A stretch of 31,980 nt of DNA from a virus. Shown piece by piece: positions 2,609-20,519 of the stretch. How positions within the stretch are numbered: position 1 is the stretch's first letter; each line of letters starts with the position of its first letter. Made by a program: the position numbers and the translations under genes. The notes under the pieces are model-generated. The model was not told the origin of the DNA. It searched no databases and saw only the letters and a list, made by a program, of their open reading frames with translations. The DNA lies in the IMG/VR virus record IMGVR_UViG_3300046722_000051, positions 1 to 31,980 of that record, one strand, 5' to 3'.

Positions 2609-4039
2609 TTATAGCCTCCCTATCGGCGCGTAAAGGTCTTTGATTCTGCAAATATCACCCTTGTAAGCAACGATGATCTTTTGTTCTCGTTTGGGGAACT
2701 TGCGATAGTTCAGAGTCTTCTTGGCGTGGGCCAGCCGAGTGAATTCACATTCGAGGTAGGTAATCTTATTATAAACCGAAAGGCCATGCTCTTTGAAGAA
2801 AAGTTCCGTTTCGGCCTCGGAACAGTAATATGCCCCGTCTTTGTCCCGGCTGTCGCCAGTCATCACCACGAAGAAGCAATTATCATTCAGCCGATCAATG
2901 GCGATTTTGTATCCAGCGAAAAGCGCAGCACTGAACTTGTCGTAAGTGCTGAAAGTGTTCAGTTCTCCGGGGGGAGGGTTTCCGTCGTAATCAAGATATT
3001 CCTCGACCTTGTAATAAGGCGGGCAGGTGAACACCAGATCGAATCTTCCTTCCGGCTCATAGGTGGAGCTGTCGCTCTGTATCCAAGTGGAATCAAAGTC
3101 GCTGCAGAGCTTGTTATTTGCATCGCACTGGTTCTGCCTCAATTCGCTGGCCACGTATTCATAGCCATACGATCCAGCGACAAATCCAAACTGAACACCT
3201 CCGCCGAATGGATTGTAAATTCTCCGTCCGCGTTCTGGAATGAAGAATCGCAACACCACTTCACAAGCGACAGGATCAAGAACGGAAGCATTCCCGTTGT
3301 GCGCTTTTGTCTTGGCCTCAACCTCGCCAGCATCATTTATAAATCGCTTGGTGTTTACGATGTTGGAGTAGCCATTCTCCCCCTGCCAGCAACCGTCTCG
3401 CGTGGCATATGTCGGATTCTTGATGCCTTTCTTTTCGCCAACAGCTTCGATCTTCTCATTCCACTCCCGCTTCAACCGCAGCCAATCTCCTTTGGTTGTG
3501 TTCCAGACGTTTGTCATTGTGATATGCGCCAGAAGTTTCATCCGCACGGCGGACAAGTCGCCCAGGACCATGTAATGAAACCCGGACATTTTCAGATAGG
3601 TGACAAATCCAAGGCTCTCGAATAATTCCGGGGTCTCGAATTTGCTCTTCGGGTCGGTGGTGATGATTGCTGGGTAGCCCTCCGTGTTATGTTCAACCAC
3701 AGCCTCAACCATCTGTCTGTAAAGTGCGGGCGTGAAGTGCTGCGGTGAGATCACCGATTGCAACAAGCAAAACTCTTTAACGACATGATTCTTCTGGAAT
3801 GTCATAAAGCCAGCGAATTGACCGTCCACTTTTAACACTACGGCGGAATGAATCTGCATGTTCTTGCGAGCGGCTCGCATCGCAATGCCGTCCTCGATTG
3901 CGAGCTTGGCTATCTGATTTTCAAATCCAGATCCGATCACACTCGGCACGCAGAGAAATTCCGCCTGCGTCTTAATCAGGTCTAGCTGTTCGCGGGTCTT
4001 AGAGCGCGAGTGTTTTTTGTCTGGCGTTTCTATTTTCAT
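2609..4039 (-). CDS. GNAT-like domain fused to an N6/N4-type DNA amino-methyltransferase
   Basis: This is a 476-residue protein with two apparent parts. Residues about 60-160 look like a GNAT acyltransferase-type domain: beta strands AVVLKVDGQFAGFMTF, a helix RQMVEAVVEH, and the typical C-terminal signature ELFESLGFVTYLKMSGFHYMV. Residues about 250-465 are a Rossmann methyltransferase with an AdoMet-binding loop (NPFGGGVQFG, 276-285) and a catalytic TCPPYY (338-343) of the amino-methyltransferase (S/T/D)PP(Y/F) type. Motif I precedes motif IV. The start overlaps the radical-SAM-like gene by 41 bases. Likely role: modification of phage DNA, probably adenine or cytosine amino groups. The GNAT part recalls Mu Mom, a GNAT-fold enzyme that hypermodifies adenine, but that link is inference. 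The methyltransferase call is firm; the GNAT call is moderate. Confidence 0.8.
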   Translation of the reverse strand: MKIETPDKKHSRSKTREQLDLIKTQAEFLCVPSVIGSGFENQIAKLAIEDGIAMRAARKNMQIHSAVVLKVDGQFAGFMTFQKNHVVKEFCLLQSVISPQHFTPALYRQMVEAVVEHNTEGYPAIITTDPKSKFETPELFESLGFVTYLKMSGFHYMVLGDLSAVRMKLLAHITMTNVWNTTKGDWLRLKREWNEKIEAVGEKKGIKNPTYATRDGCWQGENGYSNIVNTKRFINDAGEVEAKTKAHNGNASVLDPVACEVVLRFFIPERGRRIYNPFGGGVQFGFVAGSYGYEYVASELRQNQCDANNKLCSDFDSTWIQSDSSTYEPEGRFDLVFTCPPYYKVEEYLDYDGNPPPGELNTFSTYDKFSAALFAGYKIAIDRLNDNCFFVVMTGDSRDKDGAYYCSEAETELFFKEHGLSVYNKITYLECEFTRLAHAKKTLNYRKFPKREQKIIVAYKGDICRIKDLYAPIGRL

Positions 4040-4874
4040 ATGTGGGCTTGTTCGGGTTGGTTAATGCAGGAGAGCCATTGTGACTTCCTGCGATTGCGTT
4101 TTGACCCACCAAAGTCACCCCGCAAACGTCCGGGCAATGAGAGCAATGGCCAAGGTAGGTAGAATTGTTTGAGAGCGAAACCGCTCTGACAGACTCCAAA
4201 TCTTTAACCGCCGTCAGTTTGATTATGCCGCCGACTACCAGGGAATGATTCTTTGGGACGCGCAAGGGATTATCAATGGTCGGGTGCAATCGGAATAACT
4301 CGTCCTGAACCGCAGCCATCCGTGCGCCGTCTGGATTAGCCCGAATGAAATCACAGGAAACAATCCGCGCAATGCTGTCACCCCCAGAGAGTTTAAATCG
4401 GTAGAACTCACGCTTTCGATAGGCAAGCTCGGCGGCCGTGTCCAGTGCGGAAATGGAAGTGTTCAGAACCGTTCGGCAGGCAACGAGCCTTTTAACCTGC
4501 GCGTCACTTAGCCGCATCCAGTGTTTTGTAATTACAACTGGTCGGGCGAAATCTGCGAGCCATTCGATTGTATCAACGGTTTCCTCCCAGTCGTGGCAAG
4601 GATCGCCCATTGTTCCGACCCGGAAGAAACCATGCGGAGAATTGGCAACCGCTCTCTCAATTGCCCTGGCTTGCGTCTTTGAGTGAACCTTGCGCGTGAC
4701 TGCGACGGTAAAATCTATGCCACGAAATTTGGCTATGTTAGCCGCGTAGCATCCATCGTAACAGCCAGCAGCGGGCCGCGCTGCCATGCCAGCGGTGCAA
4801 CCTTTGACCGTATCAACATCAAAAACACCTTTGGAATTAAGCGTTGCGGTCAAGACGTTTGAGAATTGGCGCAT
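3999..4874 (-). CDS. Cys-rich radical-SAM-like phage protein (Gp37/Gp68- or GP88-like)
   Basis: This is a 291-residue protein. The N-terminus carries GCT at residues 25-27 and GCYDGCYA at 37-44, giving Cys 26, 38 and 42. The spacing resembles the GCT...GC..CYA signature of phage Gp37/Gp68 (DUF5131) and GP88 families, which are considered radical-SAM-like. Later segments fit a partial TIM barrel: RVGTMGDPCHDWEET (85-99), PVVITKHW and NTSISALD. A second cluster, CSHCPDVC (Cys 244, 247, 251), lies near the C-terminus. The canonical CX3CX2C is not intact, since the first set is CX11CX3C. GAGGTGAA precedes the ATG. It is coupled to the GNAT-methyltransferase gene, so I infer an Fe-S or metal enzyme acting in nucleic-acid modification. 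Reaction and substrate are unknown. Confidence 0.62.
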   Translation of the reverse strand: MRQFSNVLTATLNSKGVFDVDTVKGCTAGMAARPAAGCYDGCYAANIAKFRGIDFTVAVTRKVHSKTQARAIERAVANSPHGFFRVGTMGDPCHDWEETVDTIEWLADFARPVVITKHWMRLSDAQVKRLVACRTVLNTSISALDTAAELAYRKREFYRFKLSGGDSIARIVSCDFIRANPDGARMAAVQDELFRLHPTIDNPLRVPKNHSLVVGGIIKLTAVKDLESVRAVSLSNNSTYLGHCSHCPDVCGVTLVGQNAIAGSHNGSPALTNPNKPTYENRNARQKTLAL

Positions 4875-5032: not shown

Positions 5033-5727
5033 TGTGAGTTGTAGTCAGGGACATCAGCGAGCGAGACATGGCGGGCATTGCGAAGGAACCGGCTGGCTAT
5101 GCGGCGCTCAAACTTGGATTCCCATGATTCAGGCGGGACATTGGTTGTGATGACTGTCCACTTGGCAACCCGCCGCTCGAGGATCAGATACAGCTTTTCC
5201 ATTCCTGCCCTGCTCGGATCGTGTTCGGCGCCGATGTCATCAATCACCAGCAGCGAAACCGGCATCATTTCCTGAACCAGATACCAGTTGCCCTCTTTGA
5301 ACCTGTCAACGGTGGTGGGCCAATGGACGAACATGGTGTCTGCCAGCCTCATTTCGCCATCGTCACTGATTACGAGGGGAATCCTCATGGCCAGCCTGGA
5401 TGCCCAGTTGTGGATCGCCTTGGCGGAATGGCTCTTCCCGGTGCCGTTCTCGCCTGAGATGATCATCCGGTAGCCGCTACTCGGCCGCTTTGCGTAGTTC
5501 GCGCAGAAGCTCCAGACCTCGTTCTGTAGCCGGGCCAAGAGCGGGTGGTGGGGGTTCAACCTTAGCCACTTGTCCAACCAGGCTTGCTTCTGACTCTTTT
5601 GCTTGTCGGTCAATGAGTCGTCTGGCGGCGGCTCCATAATCCGTCGGGCCGATGGTAATTCCAACGTTTCTAGGATTTGGCTGATTGGCTTTGTTCGATC
5701 CGGTTCCGGTGTATTTTCCGTTAGCAT
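5029..5727 (-). CDS. DnaC/IstB-like AAA+ helicase loader
   Basis: This is a 232-residue AAA+ ATPase. Walker A is SGENGTGKS (residues 91-99), Walker B is LVIDD followed by IGAE (160-167), sensor I is ITTN (193-196), and an Arg-finger-type segment ERRIASRFL lies near 207-215. This order and size match DnaC/phage helicase loaders, which deliver the replicative helicase to the initiator-bound origin. I chose the ATG at 5727, preceded by AAAAGGA; the TTG at 5760 lacks support. The first ~84 residues, including the presumed helicase-contacting region, are encoded out of frame inside the 3' end of the initiator gene (251 bases of overlap). Starting later would remove the strand leading into the P-loop, so the overlap is probably real. 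Confidence 0.85.
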   Translation of the reverse strand: MLTENTPEPDRTKPISQILETLELPSARRIMEPPPDDSLTDKQKSQKQAWLDKWLRLNPHHPLLARLQNEVWSFCANYAKRPSSGYRMIISGENGTGKSHSAKAIHNWASRLAMRIPLVISDDGEMRLADTMFVHWPTTVDRFKEGNWYLVQEMMPVSLLVIDDIGAEHDPSRAGMEKLYLILERRVAKWTVITTNVPPESWESKFERRIASRFLRNARHVSLADVPDYNSQ

Positions 5728-6334
5728 AGTTCCTTTTCCAGTTGCGTGCAGCAGCCTCAAAGCTGCGCATCGGGTTTCTGCCTACTTTCCAACCGTTTGA
5801 CTCGTAGAAATCAAAAAACTTCTCGGCCTCCTCCTGGGGCAAACCAGCTTTGACGAACCAGAGGCGCACTTGTTCGGCTGTCGGCTTCTCAAACGCCTTT
5901 TTAGTCTCTGCCCGAATGGGCACACTCTTAGGCGAGGGCGAGGGCGAGGGCGAGGGCGAGGGCGAGGGAGGCGAACATTTGTTAACATTTGTTAACATTT
6001 GTTCGGGAGCGGCTGGATATTTACTGACTGTCCTTGCATGTTCTTTCCATTTAAGCACTTGCAAGTATTTGGTTCCGTCCACCTCATAAAGCACGATCTC
6101 TCTTTTGCTAACAAGTGTTTGCAAGGCGATAACAATTGTTTGCACGGGTATCTCATTGCCATCTGGATCGCCTAAAGGGAAAGCCTCACTCCTGACCAAC
6201 ATCGGCTCGGCTTCGAGTCTGCCGTAATCATCCACCAAGGTTAGCAGGCGGATAAATAGGCTCTGGCTTAGATAGTCGCAGCGATTGAATCGGAGGCTCG
6301 TACGGACGCCTGGCCTGAGAAAGCGTTGGGGCAT
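5477..6334 (-). CDS. Phage replication initiator / replisome organiser
   Basis: This is a 285-residue protein. The N-terminal ~105 residues (MPQRFLRPGVRTSLRFNR...LFIRLLTLVDDYGRLEAEP...RSEAFPL) match the winged-helix N-domain of phage replisome organisers, typically FLxxLxxxADDxGRxxADPxLLR. A low-complexity Pro-Ser linker follows, then a C-terminal domain with FFDFYESNGWKVGRNPMRSFEAAARNWKRNYANGKY, common in phage DnaD-like or O-like initiators. I prefer the ATG at 6334 over the GTG at 6466, because the extra 44 residues look non-coding and the family starts near the conserved segment. It directly precedes and overlaps the helicase loader, giving an O/P-like pair. The gene carries an AACAnnTGTT repeat array, which suggests an internal origin. 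Confidence 0.8.
   Translation of the reverse strand: MPQRFLRPGVRTSLRFNRCDYLSQSLFIRLLTLVDDYGRLEAEPMLVRSEAFPLGDPDGNEIPVQTIVIALQTLVSKREIVLYEVDGTKYLQVLKWKEHARTVSKYPAAPEQMLTNVNKCSPPSPSPSPSPSPSPKSVPIRAETKKAFEKPTAEQVRLWFVKAGLPQEEAEKFFDFYESNGWKVGRNPMRSFEAAARNWKRNYANGKYTGTGSNKANQPNPRNVGITIGPTDYGAAARRLIDRQAKESEASLVGQVAKVEPPPPALGPATERGLELLRELRKAAE
5931..5966. repeat. Six tandem GGCGAG hexamers
   Basis: Six perfect copies of GGCGAG read on the plus strand (CTCGCC on the coding strand). In the initiator frame they encode a Ser-Pro dipeptide run that joins the N- and C-terminal domains. Copy-number change would keep the frame and only lengthen or shorten the linker. Confidence 0.95.
5974..6003. repeat. 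Three tandem AACATTTGTT decamers (iteron-like)
   Basis: Three exact, contiguous copies lie at 5974-5983, 5984-5993 and 5994-6003, inside the initiator coding region. The 10-base period is not a multiple of three, so each copy is read in a different frame (peptide QMLTNVNKC). The repetition is therefore kept at the DNA level rather than the protein level. Two related sites follow within 140 bases. Confidence 0.9.
6110..6140. repeat. Two further AACAnnTGTT sites, each followed by TGCA
   Basis: AACAAGTGTT at 6110-6119 and AACAATTGTT at 6131-6140 share the consensus of the tandem decamers, and each is followed by TGCA. The second is a perfect 10-base palindrome. Both are read in the same frame and encode QTLV and QTIV, so protein-level similarity could also explain this pair. 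Confidence 0.7.
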
Positions 6335-6504
6335 GGTCGCCAATCGAAAAGCTCTGCATCGCTGCCGTGGCAGGGTCGTGAAACAAACCAGCCTTGGCGG
6401 CAAGTCCTGTTCACGGCAACGAAGCGGAAATTTCCACTGATTTGTTTCACGGCCCCAATTACTCACACCCTTCCAGCCAACGCAAGAGAAAAATCATTCA
6501 CGGC
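6335..6504. promoter_or_regulatory. Repeat-rich leader upstream of the replication initiator
   Basis: This is a non-coding gap of 170 bases between the stop of the gene at 6505-6738 and the initiator ATG. It holds an 11-base inverted repeat (CGTGAAACAAA at 6377-6387 and TTTGTTTCACG at 6441-6451). It also holds three copies of TTCACGGC on the plus strand (6410-6417, 6446-6453, 6497-6504). Such repeats ahead of an initiator gene could be operators or additional initiator-binding sites. No clear -35/-10 pair is visible. Confidence 0.45.
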
Positions 6505-9756: not shown

Positions 9757-11747
9757 TGCCCGACTGGACCCTCACCGCCGGCACGACGACCAAGACCCTC
9801 GCCGCCTGGGGGTTCAAAGGCGACTCGCTGACCCTTGAGCGCATCAGTCAAGCCCCCGACGTTTGCACCGTGACCAAGCCGGGGCCGATGGATGCCACCC
9901 TGCTCTTCGCGTTCGGGTCCATCGTTAAGATCCAACGCCCGGACGGCACGATCTGGTTCCAGGGCCGAGCAACTCTGCCTGTTCGTCAAGGGAGCGGGGA
10001 TAATGAATCAGTTGCATACCGTTTCGAGGGGCCGTGGTTCGATCTGGACAACATCATATTCGAGCAGACTTGGCAGCAGTTTAATGGCTACACCACACCG
10101 GGCGATCCAAGCACCCCGCCGACGTTCATCAGCAAGTTTGCCAGCGAGGTGTTTCTTGGATTCCAGGCGGATGGCACACGCATCAATACCGGCCAACAGA
10201 TCACGCAGGCGCTGACCTGGGCTGTTGGCGCCGGGGCGAACCTCCAGATCGGCACGATCACGCCAGCTACAAACTTCGCCTATTACAACGTGCGCGACAT
10301 GACTTGCGGTGAGGTGATCCGCCAGATGTTGCGCTGGACACCGGACACGATTACCTGGTTCGACTACAGCACAACACCTCCGACATTCTACGCCAAGCGC
10401 CTGGCCGATCTGACGGCAACGACGGTGACGCTGGGCACTGACAAAATCAAAGCCTTGTCATTGCGCCCTCGTCCTGACCTTGTGCTCGATGCCTGCGTGA
10501 TCCGCTACAAGATACCCAACAGCGTAAACGGGATTGTGTTCATAGCCATTCAGACCGACACTTACCCGGTTGGCGCCACGGAGCAGCACATTTTTAACAG
10601 CATCAACACCATTGAGCTTTTTGGATTCCGCAAGACCGTGGTGAGTGCGACGATCAAGACGAACACGATATTTGCCAATGCGGTGGCATCGGCTGACCGG
10701 GTGACATGGTGGGAGAACAAAATCCCATGGCTCAAAGACCCGCACATTGTCCAATCCAGCATCCAAATCACCTTCAATAGCGCCATTGAAACCATCATTG
10801 ATCCTGTAACCGGGGCATCGAATGACGTTGCGGTGGATATGACGCAGTATCCCAATGAGCTGATTGACGGCCAGATCGCCACTTGGATGACGGGGTTCCA
10901 TCAGAAGGAAGTGAAGCTCTCCGCTACGCTGACCTACGCGCGCACGACGGACACTTCTGGTGCGATACCCATTCAAGGCGCGAACGGAGTTCCCATCACT
11001 TGCACAGTGAAGGGCACCAATGCCACCTCGGGCACTTATACCGCTATCCAGAGCTTCGAGGAGGGCGACCCGGTGCCGTCCGGGCTTGCTCAGGACATTT
11101 ACACCTCACGCGCTACGCTGCAGCATGAGGGAGAAATTGAGCTTGTGGGTTCGGAGATACCTGCGGGGTTCGCCATGGGCCAGAAGATCAGCCTAAATGG
11201 CCTGGCCTCCTCGTTCGGATCCATGATGGTGCAGCAGATCACCGAGGAACCGTTCGCTGGACGAATAACCCTGCGCGTGGGGCCGCCGCGGCAGATCGGC
11301 ATTCAAGACCTTATTGAGCTGATGCGCGCCAACCGTTACCGGATCATCTACAACCTGCCCATCCAGCAGCAGGGAAGCCCCGAGGCGAGCGGCAATGTCC
11401 CGCTGGGCAGCAACATGCCCAAACAGGATTCGGTTGCCGACTCCACGCCAAGCAGTGCGTTCGGGGTCAGCAAGGACCAGGGCGGCGGAACGACTGCGGT
11501 TGTTGTTAAGGATGCCATTGGACCCGCTGCCAATCCTGGGCCACAAGTGAGGATCGTTTATTATGATTCGGCTGGCGCAAAGGTCACGACTCAACCGAGT
11601 GCCACCATGAACGTGTCCGATCTTGTCGCCCTTGGACTGGTGAACCATGACGCGAAGTTCGTACTACTGAAGTTCAAAGACCCAAACAACTCCTGCGCTC
11701 CGATGAAGATGGCGGTGATGGGCACAACGCCCGAGCCTGATGTATGA
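9756..11747 (+). CDS. Putative tail hub/baseplate protein
   Basis: This is a 663-residue protein. The N-terminal ~330 residues (short beta strands such as GSIVKIQRPDGTIWFQGRAT, then FDLDNIIFEQTWQQF, GEVIRQMLRWTPDTITWFDY) resemble tail-hub proteins of the gp27/late-control-D type, in which substrate-like barrels flank a helical insert. The C-terminal ~130 residues are Gly/Pro/Ser-rich and probably flexible. It sits directly after the tape-measure-like gene, the usual position for hub or distal-tail proteins. I see no lysozyme or peptidase motif. The assignment rests on layout and fold impression rather than a diagnostic motif. Confidence 0.45.
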   Translation: MPDWTLTAGTTTKTLAAWGFKGDSLTLERISQAPDVCTVTKPGPMDATLLFAFGSIVKIQRPDGTIWFQGRATLPVRQGSGDNESVAYRFEGPWFDLDNIIFEQTWQQFNGYTTPGDPSTPPTFISKFASEVFLGFQADGTRINTGQQITQALTWAVGAGANLQIGTITPATNFAYYNVRDMTCGEVIRQMLRWTPDTITWFDYSTTPPTFYAKRLADLTATTVTLGTDKIKALSLRPRPDLVLDACVIRYKIPNSVNGIVFIAIQTDTYPVGATEQHIFNSINTIELFGFRKTVVSATIKTNTIFANAVASADRVTWWENKIPWLKDPHIVQSSIQITFNSAIETIIDPVTGASNDVAVDMTQYPNELIDGQIATWMTGFHQKEVKLSATLTYARTTDTSGAIPIQGANGVPITCTVKGTNATSGTYTAIQSFEEGDPVPSGLAQDIYTSRATLQHEGEIELVGSEIPAGFAMGQKISLNGLASSFGSMMVQQITEEPFAGRITLRVGPPRQIGIQDLIELMRANRYRIIYNLPIQQQGSPEASGNVPLGSNMPKQDSVADSTPSSAFGVSKDQGGGTTAVVVKDAIGPAANPGPQVRIVYYDSAGAKVTTQPSATMNVSDLVALGLVNHDAKFVLLKFKDPNNSCAPMKMAVMGTTPEPDV

Positions 11748-13042
11748 GCCAGAACGCAGACTTCTGCTGCGATTGCGGCGGGCCAGGCTGCAACAATGCC
11801 CGGTTCCTGGTGGAGTTCATGGGCGTTGGCCAGTGCGGCGGATTCCAAGACCTGCTTTGCTTCGATGATTGCGGGTTCGAGTTGGGAACTCCGAACGGGT
11901 TCTGTCCTGCCAGTTCGGCCTGTGATCATGTCGCCGCCTCATTTTATTCCGGCTTCAAGCTGCGCGTGGAATATGGCACATTCGATCCAGGCACCGGGCC
12001 AACATACGCTTGGACTGAGGTTAGGGCGACCTGTGACACGACCATTGGTGAGCCGGAACATATCGAGGTTGAGCAGGGCACCGGCACACACTCGGACGGG
12101 ATTGTGTTTCAATGGACCCGCAACGCAGATGGATCAGTCAGTCAGAGCGGCGGCGTGGGCGCGATTGCTCTTGCGGTATCCAACACCAATGTTGCAAGCC
12201 ACACCAGCACGCATTATCTGCGAACAGACGCGACTATGCCGCCTGATTCTCATTACAAAACCGAGGTCACACTTGATGGAGCTGTTGCTGTTGGGGCGTG
12301 TATTACGGATGCGAAAACATTCTGCGATTCAGTCAGCATCTCAGGCAACGCCACGGTCACAATCTGGGATGGCTCCACGGTTCAAACCAATGTCCCGGCC
12401 AGCCCGTTAAGGATTCGCAAGTTCTACGCGCGCAGGCCGGGAGGATTCACTGTCATCAACGGAATCAATGGCACAACCTATACTGATGGCGTCGGAAATG
12501 CGCTTGGTGTCCCAGACGGTCCATTCGTGAATGCAGCCACCTCGCCAGAATGCCGTTACGTTGCTGGACAAGGCAACATCGGTGCTCATGACCCAAACAC
12601 ATTCCCGATTGACATAGAGGACAACGGCAGCGGCCTGCCCTTGTTCCAATCCATCTGCAATCCAGTCTATCTTAACACCATAAACGTAGCCGCAGCGACA
12701 CAGACCAAGCTCGCATTCATCATGCCGAGGTGGTGCATTGAGAAGGTTCAGGCGCAGATCATAAAATGCGATGGCAGCAACACGCTGATGGATTGGACAA
12801 CAGTTCCAACTGATCAATGCCAGATCGGTGCTGCGGCCGGTAGAATAGCCCATTGCCACTCCGAGCCTGATGGCAACAATCAAATCGGCACAATAACCAA
12901 TGTTGATGGTTGCCAATCCGGCGGATGCACAGGCATTATCTGGCTGTTCACTTATCACGACATGCAAACCTTCGGCTGGATGGAGCTTGACGAAACAACT
13001 TGTGGCGATTGCACTGTGATCTGTAATAACCTGGCGCCATGA
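11744..13042 (+). CDS. Cysteine-rich tail-module protein
   Basis: This is a 432-residue protein with about 23 cysteines, clustered at the N-terminus (CCDCGGPGC, residues 8-16) and C-terminus (CGDCTVIC). The body is beta-rich and Gly/Asn/Thr-rich. That number of Cys is unusual in a cytoplasmically assembled virion protein and suggests metal-binding knots or disulfides formed after release. No signal peptide is visible. Its position between the hub-like gene and small Cys-containing proteins indicates a tail-tip or receptor-binding component. No family recognised. Confidence 0.5.
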   Translation: MSQNADFCCDCGGPGCNNARFLVEFMGVGQCGGFQDLLCFDDCGFELGTPNGFCPASSACDHVAASFYSGFKLRVEYGTFDPGTGPTYAWTEVRATCDTTIGEPEHIEVEQGTGTHSDGIVFQWTRNADGSVSQSGGVGAIALAVSNTNVASHTSTHYLRTDATMPPDSHYKTEVTLDGAVAVGACITDAKTFCDSVSISGNATVTIWDGSTVQTNVPASPLRIRKFYARRPGGFTVINGINGTTYTDGVGNALGVPDGPFVNAATSPECRYVAGQGNIGAHDPNTFPIDIEDNGSGLPLFQSICNPVYLNTINVAAATQTKLAFIMPRWCIEKVQAQIIKCDGSNTLMDWTTVPTDQCQIGAAAGRIAHCHSEPDGNNQIGTITNVDGCQSGGCTGIIWLFTYHDMQTFGWMELDETTCGDCTVICNNLAP

Positions 13043-16105: not shown

Positions 16106-17797
16106 ATGCGGCTGTTTGGCTATGATCTTCGCAACCCTTTTCTAAGGGCCAGAAGCCCCAATCTTCCCCCGCGCGGCTCTGACCAGCAGTTAGCCGACAT
16201 CCTCCCTCCGTTCGGCACAAACCCGCCTCAAGGCCCAATCCACACCGCCAGTTATGAGATGGGCGATAGGCTCATCCATAACGATCCGCGCGAGCTTTGG
16301 TATCTGGCCCTGCCATCCAAGCTTACACCGCAACAGGTTACGAACATCCTGCGCGCGGCCCTGGGTGGCGACGTCTGGCAGCAATGGCAGCTCCTGAGCC
16401 TGATGATGGACACATGGCCAATGCTCAGGAAGTGTGCGTTTGAGGTGTTGAGTGCAGTATCCACCTCTAAATACATCGTTCGTCCTTATTGCGAACCTGG
16501 AGAAGATCCAACCGATACGGCTCTTGAAAAGGCCGATCTGGTGCAAAGGGCTGTCGCCGGCATGGCCCCTAACCCATTCAATGATGAAACCGGATTCTCC
16601 GGAATGGTATTCGACCTGTGCGATGCGATGCTCAACGGGTTGGCCATGACGGAACTGATGTGGCAGGAGGTCCAGGGCGAGTTGATGCCGCGCGCGAGTG
16701 CCTGGGTGCATCCCCGGCATTTCACATTCGGCAATGATGGAGTGCTGAACATCTTCGACGAGACATACCACAGGCTGAACTTTCAACTGGCTCAGAACCC
16801 CGGCCAGATGCCTGACCCGAACAAGTTCTTATGCGCCCAGTTTAAGAGCCGGAGCGGATCAAGCCTTGGCAACGGCCTGATGCGGCCGCTGGCCTGGTAT
16901 TGGTCTGCCATCGTGTTCAATCGGGAATGGATGCTCGAAGTGGCCCAGAAATACGGGTCCATGTTCCTGGACATGACATACAAACCCGGCACACCACAGG
17001 CCGAGGTGGATAAAATGAACAGTTTCCTGAACAAAGCGGCTATCAGAGGCTGGATGACGCATGTGGAGGGATCGGTCATCAATGTTACTCCTGCTGCCGC
17101 TATGGGGCCGGACAATCCCCAGGTCCACATCATCAAAGCCGCCGATGAAGCCTGCCAACTGCTGTTGCTGGGCCAGACCGCTACGACCAGCCCGACACCG
17201 GGCAAGTTGGGCAATGACCAAAGCCACATGGAGGTCAAGCGCGAGCATATCGAGAGGATTGCTAAATGGATTTCACCGTCAGTGCTCACCAATCAGTTCA
17301 GCCGTGCCATCGTGCGCGTTAATTACTTCGGAACTCAGAACCCATTCGCTGTAGTCACCGAGATACCATCTGTAGACGCCGACTTCACCGAGGCAACAGA
17401 CCCGCTCACAGAAGCGCAGCGCGACCAGATATTCCTTACTGCCGAGGTGCCATTGGGCGAGGAAGAGTTTTACAAGCGGCACAACCTTGCCATGCCTGAG
17501 CCTGATGACCGCGTGATCGTGGGTGGCAAGGTCGGGACCATGGACGAGATCAAGCAGGAAGCTGCTGATGCACTTGCCGCACAACAGCAGCCCAAACTCG
17601 ATGCGAACGGCAAGCCAATGACACAGCCCCAGGACGATCCGTTGCGTAAAGCCGTGGCCAAAGCCAGCACTGAGGATGTGCAGGAGCTGCATCGGCTCAT
17701 TGTGGCCGCCAAACAGGCCAAGCACATGAACGGCGAACTTGAGGCAGTCGAAATCAAGATCAAACAGATTAAGAAAGGCGCTTATGCCAGATCCTGA
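16106..17797 (+). CDS. Portal protein (Mu gp29 / DUF935-type)
   Basis: This is a 563-residue protein. Strong DUF935 features include LMMDTWPMLRKCAFEVLSAVS near residue 100, AMLNGLAMTELMWQ, PRHFTFGNDGVL and FNREWMLEVAQKYGSMFLDM, in the order seen in Mu gp29-type portals. These form the dodecameric channel at the capsid vertex for DNA entry and tail attachment. The C-terminal ~90 residues are Gln/Asp-rich, as in family members. It follows the terminase genes and overlaps the protease-capsid gene by 14 bases, matching the canonical head-gene order. Confidence 0.88.
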   Translation: MRLFGYDLRNPFLRARSPNLPPRGSDQQLADILPPFGTNPPQGPIHTASYEMGDRLIHNDPRELWYLALPSKLTPQQVTNILRAALGGDVWQQWQLLSLMMDTWPMLRKCAFEVLSAVSTSKYIVRPYCEPGEDPTDTALEKADLVQRAVAGMAPNPFNDETGFSGMVFDLCDAMLNGLAMTELMWQEVQGELMPRASAWVHPRHFTFGNDGVLNIFDETYHRLNFQLAQNPGQMPDPNKFLCAQFKSRSGSSLGNGLMRPLAWYWSAIVFNREWMLEVAQKYGSMFLDMTYKPGTPQAEVDKMNSFLNKAAIRGWMTHVEGSVINVTPAAAMGPDNPQVHIIKAADEACQLLLLGQTATTSPTPGKLGNDQSHMEVKREHIERIAKWISPSVLTNQFSRAIVRVNYFGTQNPFAVVTEIPSVDADFTEATDPLTEAQRDQIFLTAEVPLGEEEFYKRHNLAMPEPDDRVIVGGKVGTMDEIKQEAADALAAQQQPKLDANGKPMTQPQDDPLRKAVAKASTEDVQELHRLIVAAKQAKHMNGELEAVEIKIKQIKKGAYARS

Positions 17798-20519
17798 ACC
17801 TATTCAAGCCAAGGGCACCGCACCCGGCGCCAAGAAGGCCAACGCCACGCGCAAGACCGCAGCGGCTGATTCATCCAGCACCGACGCCCACGAGGCCAGC
17901 GCAAAGGCACACGACACCGATGCGCCCGACGATCACAAGGCCGCGGCTGATGCCCACCAGAAGGCTTACGACAAGCACGAAACGGCCTACAAAGCCAACG
18001 CCAAGGCCGGTAATGACGATGCCATGGATCATCACATGGCAGCCATGAGCGGTCACAAGGCCATGGTTGGGGTGCATTCTGATGGGGATGATGACGATGA
18101 TGACGCCAAGGCCAAGGGCGGGGCAACCAATGGCATTGTCCATTGCGAGGGTTCCTCAGCCACATTCGAGGAAACACCCACAGGCGAGCTTCAATGGATG
18201 CCAGGCGGTGTAACCACGGTTACGGCCAATTACGATGGCAAGCCCATCCAATTGACCGTCCAATGCACGCAGGACAGCGCCAGGACCGTCGCTGACTCGT
18301 TCGAGAGGTGTATCAAGGCCAGCCCGCGCCGGCCTCCATACGGCTGCGTGGAGCACAGGGAAGAGGAAGCAGCATTCCATCCCAAAGGCTTTACATGGAA
18401 GGATCAGCCTGAGCCTGGAATCTATTGTTCAGCCGAATGGACCACTCTGGGCCTGCGTAATGTCCGGGGAAAGATTCACACCAGCTTTTCACCCAGTTTC
18501 GCCACAGACGCCGAATACACCAAGGGCAGTCTGCGTGATGGTGTCCTGACATTTCCCGATGGTGTGAAAGGCAGCGAAAGTAATCCTGCCAACATCACCG
18601 GGGTTAGCCATAAGTCGGTTGGTAGCTTAACCAACTGGCCGGCATTCAAGAACATTTTGCCCGTCCGGGCGAAACAGGCCGAACCGCAGCCTGAAACAAC
18701 AAACGCGGGTCAAATCACAGGTCTAAAAATGAGAGTCAAACTACTCAAGGCCCGCGGATCAAACACTGCGGGGACATACCTCGAACTGGAAGATAACGAC
18801 GCCGTTAAGGCTGTCGCTTCAGGCGAGGCCATGCCGGAACATGCGGCTCAGGCTATTGAAGCCAGGGACGCCGAACTAGTCACAATCAAAGCCAAACAAA
18901 CCGAGTCCGACAAGAGCCGGATCGTCGAGGCGATTGACCGCGGCGTGAAGCGCGGCGCATTGCTGCCCAAGGGCACGGATGCCAAGAGCCAGGAAACGAT
19001 CAAGGCCACCCAGTTTGACAGGCTGCTCAAGGGCGCCGATGTCAACCTGCTCATTGAGATGCTGGACAACATGCCGCAGGTCACAAATCCTGAAGGGCTG
19101 ACCGGGCGCCGGATTCAGGCAGAGAATGGGAGTGTTGATAAGCACGTATTCGGCGGTGAACCGACCGCTGCTGAGGTGGTCGAGAAGATCATCAGCGCGT
19201 CAGGTAAGGACAGGATTGGATCAGCAATCGGAGCATGTCACCGCCCGTTATCGCTTCAACAGGGCGGGTCGAGCCTGAGCGATATACAAGCCGCCGCCGC
19301 TGAATCCTTGGATAATGCCAGACTGCTAAAAGCCCATGTGCTCGATGCTTACAACAAGCAGGGCGACTGGGCATTGCGCCAGATGGTTCGCGCCATCAGC
19401 GATGTAACCGACCCCAATACTCAGGTTGGCACGCTGTCCAGCACGCTCGTTCTGATGAGGAACCTTGGCTACCTGAAGAACAAGCTAAACTTCATGCCTT
19501 ACATCAGCACCGACCTGCGGGCCGAACCGGCGAGGTATGGCCAGTCTGTTCTGACTCGTTACATTACGCCGCCCAATGTGCTAACCTACGTGCCCGGCAC
19601 TGGTTACACCTCGGATGCGACTGCGATCAGCAATTACATCGCCAACCTCGGCACGAACAAGGCCAACATTGGAACCTCGGTTTCAGGTGTGGCTGCTGAT
19701 GTGGCCGGAACTCACACACTCAGCGCCCCAAGCACAACGGATGTGCCTGTCATCATCAACAACCATACGGGTGTTGAGATCAGGTTCCCGACGAGCACAA
19801 TCGGAGCAACTGTCCGTAACCTGTTCGCGGAACAGCAGGGCGCACAGATGTATTCACTGGCCGAGTTCATCAACAAGGTATTCCTGGCAACGGTATTCAG
19901 CGCCACCTGGAACGGTATCAGTGCCACGGCGCTTCCGCTGGGCGGTAACACGTTCGGACTGTCTGGTGTGGTGAAGATCAAGAACAAGTTCTCGATCAAC
20001 AAGATGCCTGACACCGGGCGCTTCGCGGTCTTGCACTCGGTCTATCACGACAACATTCTGACTGATGCCAGCCTGCTCACTGCCAAGGCAATCCTGGCCG
20101 TGAATGGTGGCGAGAGCGACTTCGAGACCGGCGAACTTCCGACGTTGTTCGGGATCAAGGTTCTGGAAAGCCAGCTCGCGGCATACAAATCGGCTGGATC
20201 AGTGGCTGCGGCCTTTACCGGGCTGGTGACGCCTACCGATCCGACGACCATTGCTGCTGTTGCTCCTGACGGCATCGGGTTTGCGGGTAACTCAGCCTCG
20301 GCCCTGTTCGTGGCTCGTTTGCCGCAGGATTATACCACGGTCCTTCCCAACATCCCGGCCACAGCAGCAATCGAGATCGTGACCGAACCGGACAGCGGGT
20401 TGTCTCTCCTGTTCACCAAGTACGTGGATCATTCGCTGGCCGAAGTGAAGGCGCGCTGCGCCATCATGTTTGGTTTCGCGCAAGGCGATCCTCGGCAGGG
20501 TTTCGTTCTGACACCATAA
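17784..20519 (+). CDS. Fused prohead protease and major capsid protein
   Basis: This is a 911-residue protein. Residues about 20-125 are low complexity, with repeated His/Asp/Ala units and a DDDDDD run. Residues about 195-300 match the Mu I-type protease family (GIYCSAEWTTLGL, FSPSF, then VGSLTNWPAFKNILPV). From Met316 a short helical scaffold-like region leads to a capsid domain (about 500-911) with NLFAEQQGAQMYSLAEF and RFAVLHSVYHDNILTD, typical of HK97-fold capsid proteins. I chose the ATG at 17784 because an upstream in-frame ATG (17739) lies within the portal gene. An internal ATG at 18729 could make a separate scaffold-capsid product. Self-cleavage is expected but not shown. Confidence 0.75.
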   Translation: MPDPEPIQAKGTAPGAKKANATRKTAAADSSSTDAHEASAKAHDTDAPDDHKAAADAHQKAYDKHETAYKANAKAGNDDAMDHHMAAMSGHKAMVGVHSDGDDDDDDAKAKGGATNGIVHCEGSSATFEETPTGELQWMPGGVTTVTANYDGKPIQLTVQCTQDSARTVADSFERCIKASPRRPPYGCVEHREEEAAFHPKGFTWKDQPEPGIYCSAEWTTLGLRNVRGKIHTSFSPSFATDAEYTKGSLRDGVLTFPDGVKGSESNPANITGVSHKSVGSLTNWPAFKNILPVRAKQAEPQPETTNAGQITGLKMRVKLLKARGSNTAGTYLELEDNDAVKAVASGEAMPEHAAQAIEARDAELVTIKAKQTESDKSRIVEAIDRGVKRGALLPKGTDAKSQETIKATQFDRLLKGADVNLLIEMLDNMPQVTNPEGLTGRRIQAENGSVDKHVFGGEPTAAEVVEKIISASGKDRIGSAIGACHRPLSLQQGGSSLSDIQAAAAESLDNARLLKAHVLDAYNKQGDWALRQMVRAISDVTDPNTQVGTLSSTLVLMRNLGYLKNKLNFMPYISTDLRAEPARYGQSVLTRYITPPNVLTYVPGTGYTSDATAISNYIANLGTNKANIGTSVSGVAADVAGTHTLSAPSTTDVPVIINNHTGVEIRFPTSTIGATVRNLFAEQQGAQMYSLAEFINKVFLATVFSATWNGISATALPLGGNTFGLSGVVKIKNKFSINKMPDTGRFAVLHSVYHDNILTDASLLTAKAILAVNGGESDFETGELPTLFGIKVLESQLAAYKSAGSVAAAFTGLVTPTDPTTIAAVAPDGIGFAGNSASALFVARLPQDYTTVLPNIPATAAIEIVTEPDSGLSLLFTKYVDHSLAEVKARCAIMFGFAQGDPRQGFVLTP
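18729..20519 (+). other. Possible internal translation start of the capsid part
   Basis: An in-frame ATG at 18729 begins MRVKLLKARGSN, with an AGG six to nine bases upstream. It lies exactly where the protease-like region ends. An internal start like lambda Nu3 within C would yield scaffold-capsid independently of the protease. Only the position and weak ribosome-binding site support this. Confidence 0.35.

What the first reader, a model, noticed from the sequence alone, without database searches (positions are those of the whole stretch)
2609..4874. Radical-SAM-like gene coupled to a GNAT-methyltransferase fusion: candidate DNA hypermodification cassette
Two overlapping early genes pair a Cys-rich radical-SAM-like protein with a two-domain protein joining a GNAT-like fold to an amino-methyltransferase (NPFGGG, TCPPYY). 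GNAT folds are known in DNA modification from Mu Mom. The combination suggests a multi-step base modification (methyl or amino-group chemistry followed by acyl-type transfer) that could protect phage DNA from host restriction. I know of no described system with exactly this pairing; the pathway is inferred.
Basis: partly seen in the sequence, partly recalled or inferred. Interest (0 to 1): 0.82.

Follow-up and report, generated by a model that had tools for sequence, protein, structure and literature searches.

The report
Phage radical-SAM, GNAT and methyltransferase DNA-modification module
An uncultivated phage carries two overlapping genes, fused into one protein in about half of its relatives, that pair a divergent radical-SAM enzyme with an acetyltransferase-like fold joined to a DNA methyltransferase; this undescribed pairing probably makes an unusual DNA base that shields the phage from its host.

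Summary
Window 3999-4874(-) encodes a radical-SAM-fold protein (RS1) and 2609-4039(-) a GNAT-fold plus amino-methyltransferase protein, with 41 bp overlap. The pairing is not chance. Of 78 distinct GNAT-MTases with >=900 bp on both sides, 77 lie next to a radical-SAM gene. In 43 of them the two are fused into one ~735-aa RS1-GNAT-MTase protein. Reciprocally, 93 of 96 RS1 genes with >=1.5 kb flanks have the GNAT-MTase. In some relatives a different, canonical radical-SAM family (RS2) replaces RS1, at least three times on the tree.

The nearest methyltransferases (ParB-MTases) are wired differently: 68 of 84 have an S-adenosylmethionine decarboxylase downstream, and none of 28 contigs tested carries a canonical radical SAM. 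RS1 copies without the GNAT-MTase can adjoin TAGT DNA glycosyltransferases; RS2 can adjoin C5-MTases.

Best reading: a compact phage DNA-base hypermodification module. A link to Mom is not supported: no profile similarity, and the GNAT lacks the CoA-binding motif. Step order and product are unknown. No isolated phage in INPHARED has RS1 or the GNAT domain, and I know of no description. Verdict: real, new variant of a known kind, chemistry untested.

The parts
3999..4874 (-). RS1: divergent radical-SAM-fold protein, 291 aa
   Evidence: ORF; AF2 model pLDDT 90.2, pTM 0.86; top PDB Foldseek hits PFL-activating enzyme 3cb8 (prob 0.98), EpeE, AprD4; viral Foldseek hits are phage radical-SAM proteins; 51-member alignment
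4749..4799 (-). Putative [4Fe-4S]/SAM cluster motif C26-x11-C38-x3-C42-Y-A (atypical spacing; first gap 9-12 residues in relatives)
   Evidence: invariant Cys in 51 sequences; spacing counted
4122..4145 (-). C-terminal C244-x2-C247-x3-C251-G triad, possible second metal or Fe-S site
   Evidence: present in 51/51 aligned relatives; metal identity not tested
2609..4039 (-). GNAT-MTase: two-domain protein, 476 aa (exact start uncertain; conserved region begins near residue 26)
   Evidence: ORF; 43-member alignment; AF2 model pLDDT 78
3560..3964 (-). GNAT-fold domain (residues 26-160), lacks CoA-binding motif A, has invariant RAARKNMQxHSA and EFCLLQS segments
   Evidence: predicted order b1-a1-a2-b2-b3-b4-a3-b5-a4-b6-b7; weak PDB profile hits all GNATs; paralogue L077 hits PF00583 at 8.5e-4; motif count
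2612..3511 (-). Amino-methyltransferase domain (residues 177-476), related to phage ParB-MTases
   Evidence: PHROG 12517 6e-38 and 498 'DNA methyltransferase' 2e-34; PF01555 in 36 of 43 members, best 3.4e-6; tblastn to ParB-MTase phages
3197..3214 (-). MTase motif I NPFGGG
   Evidence: invariant in 43 homologues; counterpart FDCFAG in ParB-MTases
3011..3028 (-). MTase motif IV TCPPYY
   Evidence: CPPYY invariant; SCPPYF in ParB-MTases

Best explanation
RS1 plus GNAT-MTase is a self-contained phage module for DNA base hypermodification. Shown: the two are an evolutionary unit (fusion, reciprocal adjacency, replacement of one radical-SAM family by another). Inferred from homology: the methyltransferase domain alkylates an exocyclic amine of a DNA base (adenine N6 or cytosine N4 most likely) using SAM. 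Inferred from context: the radical-SAM enzyme, acting without oxygen, then activates a C-H bond, most simply on the newly installed methyl group, and the GNAT-fold domain helps add a further group. Speculative: the product is a bulky base that blocks host restriction or other DNA-targeting defences.
For: Reciprocal co-occurrence: 77/78 GNAT-MTases beside a radical SAM; 93/96 RS1 beside a GNAT-MTase. RS1-GNAT-MTase fusion in 52 of 98 distinct proteins. Gene order is free (RS1 upstream, downstream or fused), so the link is functional and not a frozen operon. RS1 is replaced by canonical radical-SAM family RS2 (PF04055, down to 1e-11) at least three times on the tree. RS1 and RS2 align co-linearly over 206 columns, E 0.0017. 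DNA context: MTase domain kin to phage DNA MTases; RS1-only loci abut TAGT DNA glycosyltransferases (L004, L109), and TAGT also sits in L152 and 4 of 29 GNAT-MTase contigs. RS2 pairs with C5-MTases in 13 of 85 loci. No third gene recurs around the pair (13/97 at most). The four cellular genomes with the module are from Desulfobacula, Desulfobacterales, Smithella and a spirochaete; the first three are groups of anaerobes, which suits radical-SAM chemistry.
Against: No product has been measured. The GNAT domain lacks a CoA-binding motif and might be a DNA-binding or specificity domain. ParB-MTases can stand alone (Funu2), so the MTase domain may only methylate. One phage (L019/L020) has the GNAT-MTase with no detectable radical SAM. 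RS2 is a common phage gene that often sits by ParB-like genes (36/85), so its replacement of RS1 is weaker evidence than it looks. RS1's cluster motif is atypical, and SAM cleavage is unproven.
Confidence: 0.5

Rival explanations
1. The unusual group is made before transfer: the radical-SAM and/or GNAT domain builds a modified SAM-type donor or SAM-derived alkyl group which the methyltransferase domain then transfers whole to the base, as carboxy-SAM is used by CmoX and as decarboxylated SAM would be used by the ParB-MTase sister group.
For: Sister ParB-MTases are followed by SAM decarboxylase in 68/84 loci; P2559S is one of them, and its decarboxylase restored spermidine synthesis in an E. 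coli speD mutant (PMC9992855). Others pair with or are fused to PLP enzymes. So this MTase family is repeatedly wired to enzymes of SAM or amino-acid chemistry. SAM decarboxylase is absent from 42 GNAT-MTase/RS contigs.
Against: No radical-SAM enzyme known to me makes an alternative alkyl donor for a methyltransferase; the decarboxylases may serve spermidine synthesis and not DNA.
Confidence: 0.2
2. Plain DNA methylation. The GNAT fold is a recognition domain (as ParB may be in the sister group), and the radical-SAM protein does an unrelated or regulatory job.
For: MTase motifs are intact; the GNAT lacks motif A; ParB-MTases exist without partners.
Against: Fusion and near-obligate reciprocal linkage; dense invariant polar residues in the GNAT domain (R55, R58, K59, N60, Q62, H64, S65, E89, C91, Q94, S95) look like an active site.
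Confidence: 0.15
3. The module modifies RNA (host or phage tRNA) or a protein and not DNA.
For: Foldseek hits to the MTase part include the tRNA guanine-N2 enzymes Trm11 and TrmN; radical-SAM and GNAT enzymes are common in tRNA modification (general knowledge).
Against: Closest sequence relatives are phage DNA MTases and ParB-MTases; RS1 and RS2 neighbours are DNA-modification genes (TAGT, C5-MTase).
Confidence: 0.08

Closest known systems
Phage ParB-MTases with SAM decarboxylase (Pseudomonas phage ZRG1, Croceibacter phage P2559S)
   Same: Homologous MTase domain (about 25-33% identity), N-terminal extra domain, tight pairing with a SAM-handling enzyme
   Different: ParB_N instead of GNAT; SpeD instead of radical SAM; separate clade with 100% SH-aLRT; 0/28 contigs have a canonical radical SAM or TAGT
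Mu Mom
   Same: GNAT fold used in phage DNA modification (literature: PMC7824862); Mom also lacks an R/Q-x-x-G-x-G/A motif (sequence)
   Different: No profile similarity (hhalign prob 0.1%); Mom is encoded with Com, without MTase or radical SAM beside it
Phage CmoA/CmoX/CmoY carboxymethylcytosine system (PMC12783734)
   Same: MTase family installs a handle that a second enzyme elaborates
   Different: C5-MTase, carboxy-SAM and amide ligase; no radical SAM or GNAT mentioned
Phage TET + TAGT pathway
   Same: RS1 can neighbour TAGT; logic methylate, activate the methyl, decorate
   Different: No Tet_JBP hit in 16 contigs (control also silent, so inconclusive); radical SAM in the place of an oxygenase is only a hypothesis
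Thymidine hypermodification pathways (radical-SAM isomerases and acetyltransferases acting on 5-hydroxymethyl-dU; recalled, paper not held)
   Same: Radical SAM and acetyltransferase enzymes both take part in phage base hypermodification
   Different: Those start from 5-hmdU made by thymidylate-synthase homologues; none found in 28 contigs; no amino-MTase fusion recalled

Membership tests
Radical SAM superfamily | Partial TIM-barrel radical-SAM fold | tested here: met
   AF2 model pLDDT 90; best Foldseek hits are radical-SAM enzymes, prob up to 0.98, though TM only about 0.3-0.5
Radical SAM superfamily | CX3CX2C cluster motif | tested here: not met
   RS1 has C-x9-12-C-x3-C; RS2 has the canonical C-x3-C-x2-C
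Radical SAM superfamily | Pfam Radical_SAM model | tested here: not met
   RS1 none; RS2 yes
Radical SAM superfamily | Binds [4Fe-4S] and cleaves SAM | not testable with these tools
   needs purified protein
GNAT superfamily | b-a-a-b-b-b-a-b-a-b-b topology | tested here: met
   predicted secondary structure order
GNAT superfamily | Motif A Q/R-x-x-G-x-G/A binding CoA pyrophosphate | tested here: not met
   0 of 75 family members; present only in paralogue L077:5209-5871
Mom family | Sequence-profile relation to Mu Mom | tested here: not met
   hhalign prob 0.1%, E 0.5 (Mom profile shallow)
DNA amino-methyltransferases (N6/N4) | Motifs I and IV in Rossmann MTase fold | tested here: met
   NPFGGG and TCPPYY conserved; PF01555 best 3.4e-6 among members; Rossmann MTases in Foldseek
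DNA amino-methyltransferases (N6/N4) | Transfers methyl to DNA A-N6 or C-N4 | not testable with these tools
   needs assay
5-hmdU-based thymidine hypermodification | Thymidylate-synthase-like hydroxymethylase in the phage | tested here: not met
   0/28 contigs, control rang in 9 of 14 genomes; contigs may be incomplete
TET/TAGT pathway | Tet_JBP dioxygenase present | tested here: inconclusive
   0/16 but the control search rang nowhere

The most novel reading that the evidence does not exclude
RS1 and RS2 are oxygen-independent counterparts of TET dioxygenases: after a DNA methyltransferase (GNAT-MTase or C5-MTase) installs a methyl group on a base in phage DNA, the radical-SAM enzyme activates that methyl by hydrogen abstraction, and a GNAT-fold or TAGT glycosyltransferase partner elaborates it, giving anaerobe-infecting phages a route to hypermodified bases.
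Probability: 0.2. Interest if true: 0.9.

Novelty: new variant of a known kind. Interest (0 to 1): 0.72.

Why it matters
Phage base hypermodification is known, but the routes described start from 5-hydroxymethylpyrimidines, deazaguanines, Mom or carboxymethylation. A module in which one polypeptide holds a radical-SAM enzyme, a GNAT fold and an amino-methyltransferase would be a new route, probably to an undescribed base. It occurs in about a hundred distinct uncultivated phages, and none of the isolated phages searched here has it. It also makes a testable rule visible: one phage MTase scaffold is plugged into different SAM-chemistry partners (SAM decarboxylase, PLP enzyme, radical SAM plus GNAT).

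Tried and rejected
Mom homology: rejected by hhalign, with the caveat that the Mom alignment was shallow. A 5-hmdU thymidine pathway: rejected, no thymidylate synthase. A hidden third module gene: none recurs. SAM decarboxylase as a partner: absent from GNAT-MTase contigs. Pfam, NCBIfam and PHROGs on RS1: nothing convincing; weak hits such as PPR proteins in the PDB sequence search are repeat artefacts. RS1-only loci as frayed contigs: partly true (L010 and L153 end at a contig edge, L014 is frameshifted), but L004, L109, L113, L119 and L152 are real RS1-without-GNAT-MTase contexts. TET search inconclusive because its control was silent. The Foldseek top hit 6d6y (MT-GNAT) is not taken as structural proof: rmsd 19 A over two domains in the opposite order. 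A Fisher test of TAGT enrichment was dropped because the home-made TAGT model missed two loci that the Pfam model later found. Papers: no description of the pairing found in the held library; subscription papers are not held, and two key papers could not be opened.

Full report
Observation. Two overlapping minus-strand ORFs lie at 3999-4874 (291 aa) and 2609-4039 (476 aa), downstream of a replication-initiation-like gene and a DnaC-like loader. The terminase, portal and head genes lie on the plus strand. The window's two proteins are identical to those in two IMG/VR contigs, one of 42 kb.

What the two proteins are. RS1 has no significant Pfam, NCBIfam or PHROGs match. Its AF2 model is confident (pLDDT 90.2, pTM 0.86), and the top six PDB Foldseek matches are radical-SAM enzymes (PFL-activating enzyme, EpeE, AprD4). 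The viral library gives phage radical-SAM proteins. TM-scores are modest (about 0.3-0.5), so this is a divergent member. Six Cys are invariant in 51 relatives. The cluster motif is unusual, C-x9-12-C-x3-C-[YW]-A instead of CX3CX2C, and a second CxxCxxxCG triad ends the protein. The partner has a GNAT-ordered N-terminal domain. A paralogue in L077 keeps the CoA motif (KWKGNGLA) and is recognised by Pfam GNAT models, which ties the family to GNATs. The main family has lost that motif in all 75 members checked while keeping dense invariant polar residues. The C-terminal domain is an amino-methyltransferase kin to phage DNA MTases.

The unit. I searched IMG/VR with each protein separately and scored neighbours with HMMs built here. 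After removing one reverse-orientation duplicate (L161 = L020), there are 98 distinct GNAT-MTases. Of the 78 with at least 900 bp on both sides, RS1 is fused in 43, downstream in 16 and upstream in 13; RS2 is downstream in 5; one has neither. Reciprocally, 93 of 96 RS1 genes with at least 1.5 kb on both sides have the GNAT-MTase. The searches kept the best 80 hits per call, so these figures describe the closer relatives (GNAT-MTases about 62% identity and up; RS1 down to about 33%).

Partner exchange. GNAT-MTases without RS1 mostly have, overlapping or abutting their stop codon, a different gene (RS2) with a canonical CX3CX2C motif and a PF04055 match above cut-off. RS2 cases are scattered in the MTase tree, needing at least three changes on well-supported branches. 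RS1 and RS2 profiles align over 206 columns with E 0.0017, though hhalign's probability is only 16%. RS2 is itself a widespread phage gene: of 85 loci, 36 have a ParB-like gene nearby (typically directly downstream), 14 a GNAT-MTase (6 of these were the seeds) and 13 a C5-MTase. In MT835521 a C5-MTase lies directly upstream of RS2.

The sister group. The closest MTase relatives carry an N-terminal ParB domain and form a separate clade (100% SH-aLRT). Of 84 such loci, 68 have a SpeD-like SAM decarboxylase downstream, in most within 100 bp and on the same strand. For P2559S, where the two genes overlap, that decarboxylase has been shown to restore spermidine synthesis in an E. coli speD mutant (PMC9992855). 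None of 28 ParB-MTase contigs has a canonical radical SAM or a TAGT, and none of 42 GNAT-MTase/RS contigs has SpeD. AlanGrant and Pam4 relatives pair with or are fused to PLP enzymes. One MTase scaffold is thus wired to alternative chemistries.

DNA context of RS1. Where RS1 lacks the GNAT-MTase it can sit directly behind a TAGT, a family whose name denotes TET-associated DNA glycosyltransferases (L004, L109; also L152). TAGT also occurs in 4 of 29 GNAT-MTase contigs. No other gene recurs around the pair. The module is absent from the isolate-phage collection. In the cellular collection only four contigs encode an RS1 relative, all with the GNAT-MTase: Candidatus Desulfobacula maris, a Desulfobacterales MAG, Smithella and a spirochaete MAG.

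Interpretation. The shown part is that a radical-SAM protein and a GNAT-MTase form one evolutionary unit in DNA phages. The inferred part is the chemistry. I favour alkylation of an exocyclic amine followed by radical activation and further decoration, at about 0.5; donor-first synthesis, plain methylation and RNA targeting follow. Mom is a poor guide: the profiles do not match and the CoA motif is missing. Radical-SAM and acetyltransferase enzymes are, from memory, already part of thymidine hypermodification, so the kind of system is known. The pairing on an amino-methyltransferase, its fusion, and its lack of any thymidylate-synthase-like gene are what is new.

Noticed in passing
L163-L166, L173-L252 (relatives of the window MTase domain): Phage ParB-MTases are followed by SpeD-like SAM decarboxylase in 68 of 84 loci, usually within 100 bp; one such decarboxylase (P2559S) is experimentally functional. 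Suggests aminopropylation of DNA bases in place of, or besides, spermidine synthesis.
   Followed up: partly
L361:2012-4501 and L358:1-2275: The same MTase family is fused to (Pam4) or overlaps (AlanGrant) a PLP-dependent enzyme (PF00291).
   Followed up: partly
L360:2806-4328 (MT835521): C5-cytosine methyltransferase (PF00145, with SPDC at the usual PPC position) directly upstream of radical SAM RS2; a C5-MTase neighbour recurs in 13 of 85 RS2 loci.
   Followed up: partly
L077:5209-5871: Second GNAT-MTase paralogue (cut by the contig end) directly after the first, with an intact CoA-binding motif KWKGNGLA in its GNAT domain.
   Followed up: no
L119:4176-7412 and L397:2202-3254: RS1 or RS2 near PAPS-reductase-like (PP-loop) genes, in L119 also ParB-like genes: another possible DNA-modification neighbourhood.
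   Followed up: no
window 17739-20519: 926-aa ORF whose residues 673-832 match a major head protein PHROG; the long N-terminal part has no match (possible protease or scaffold fusion).
   Followed up: no
window 11744-13042: Unusually Cys-rich 432-aa protein of unknown function behind two other large ORFs; no PHROGs or Pfam hit.
   Followed up: no
window 5782-5988 within 5477-6466: Replication-initiation-like protein contains a Ser-Pro dipeptide repeat (SPSPSPSPSPSP), read as PRPRPR in another frame.
   Followed up: no
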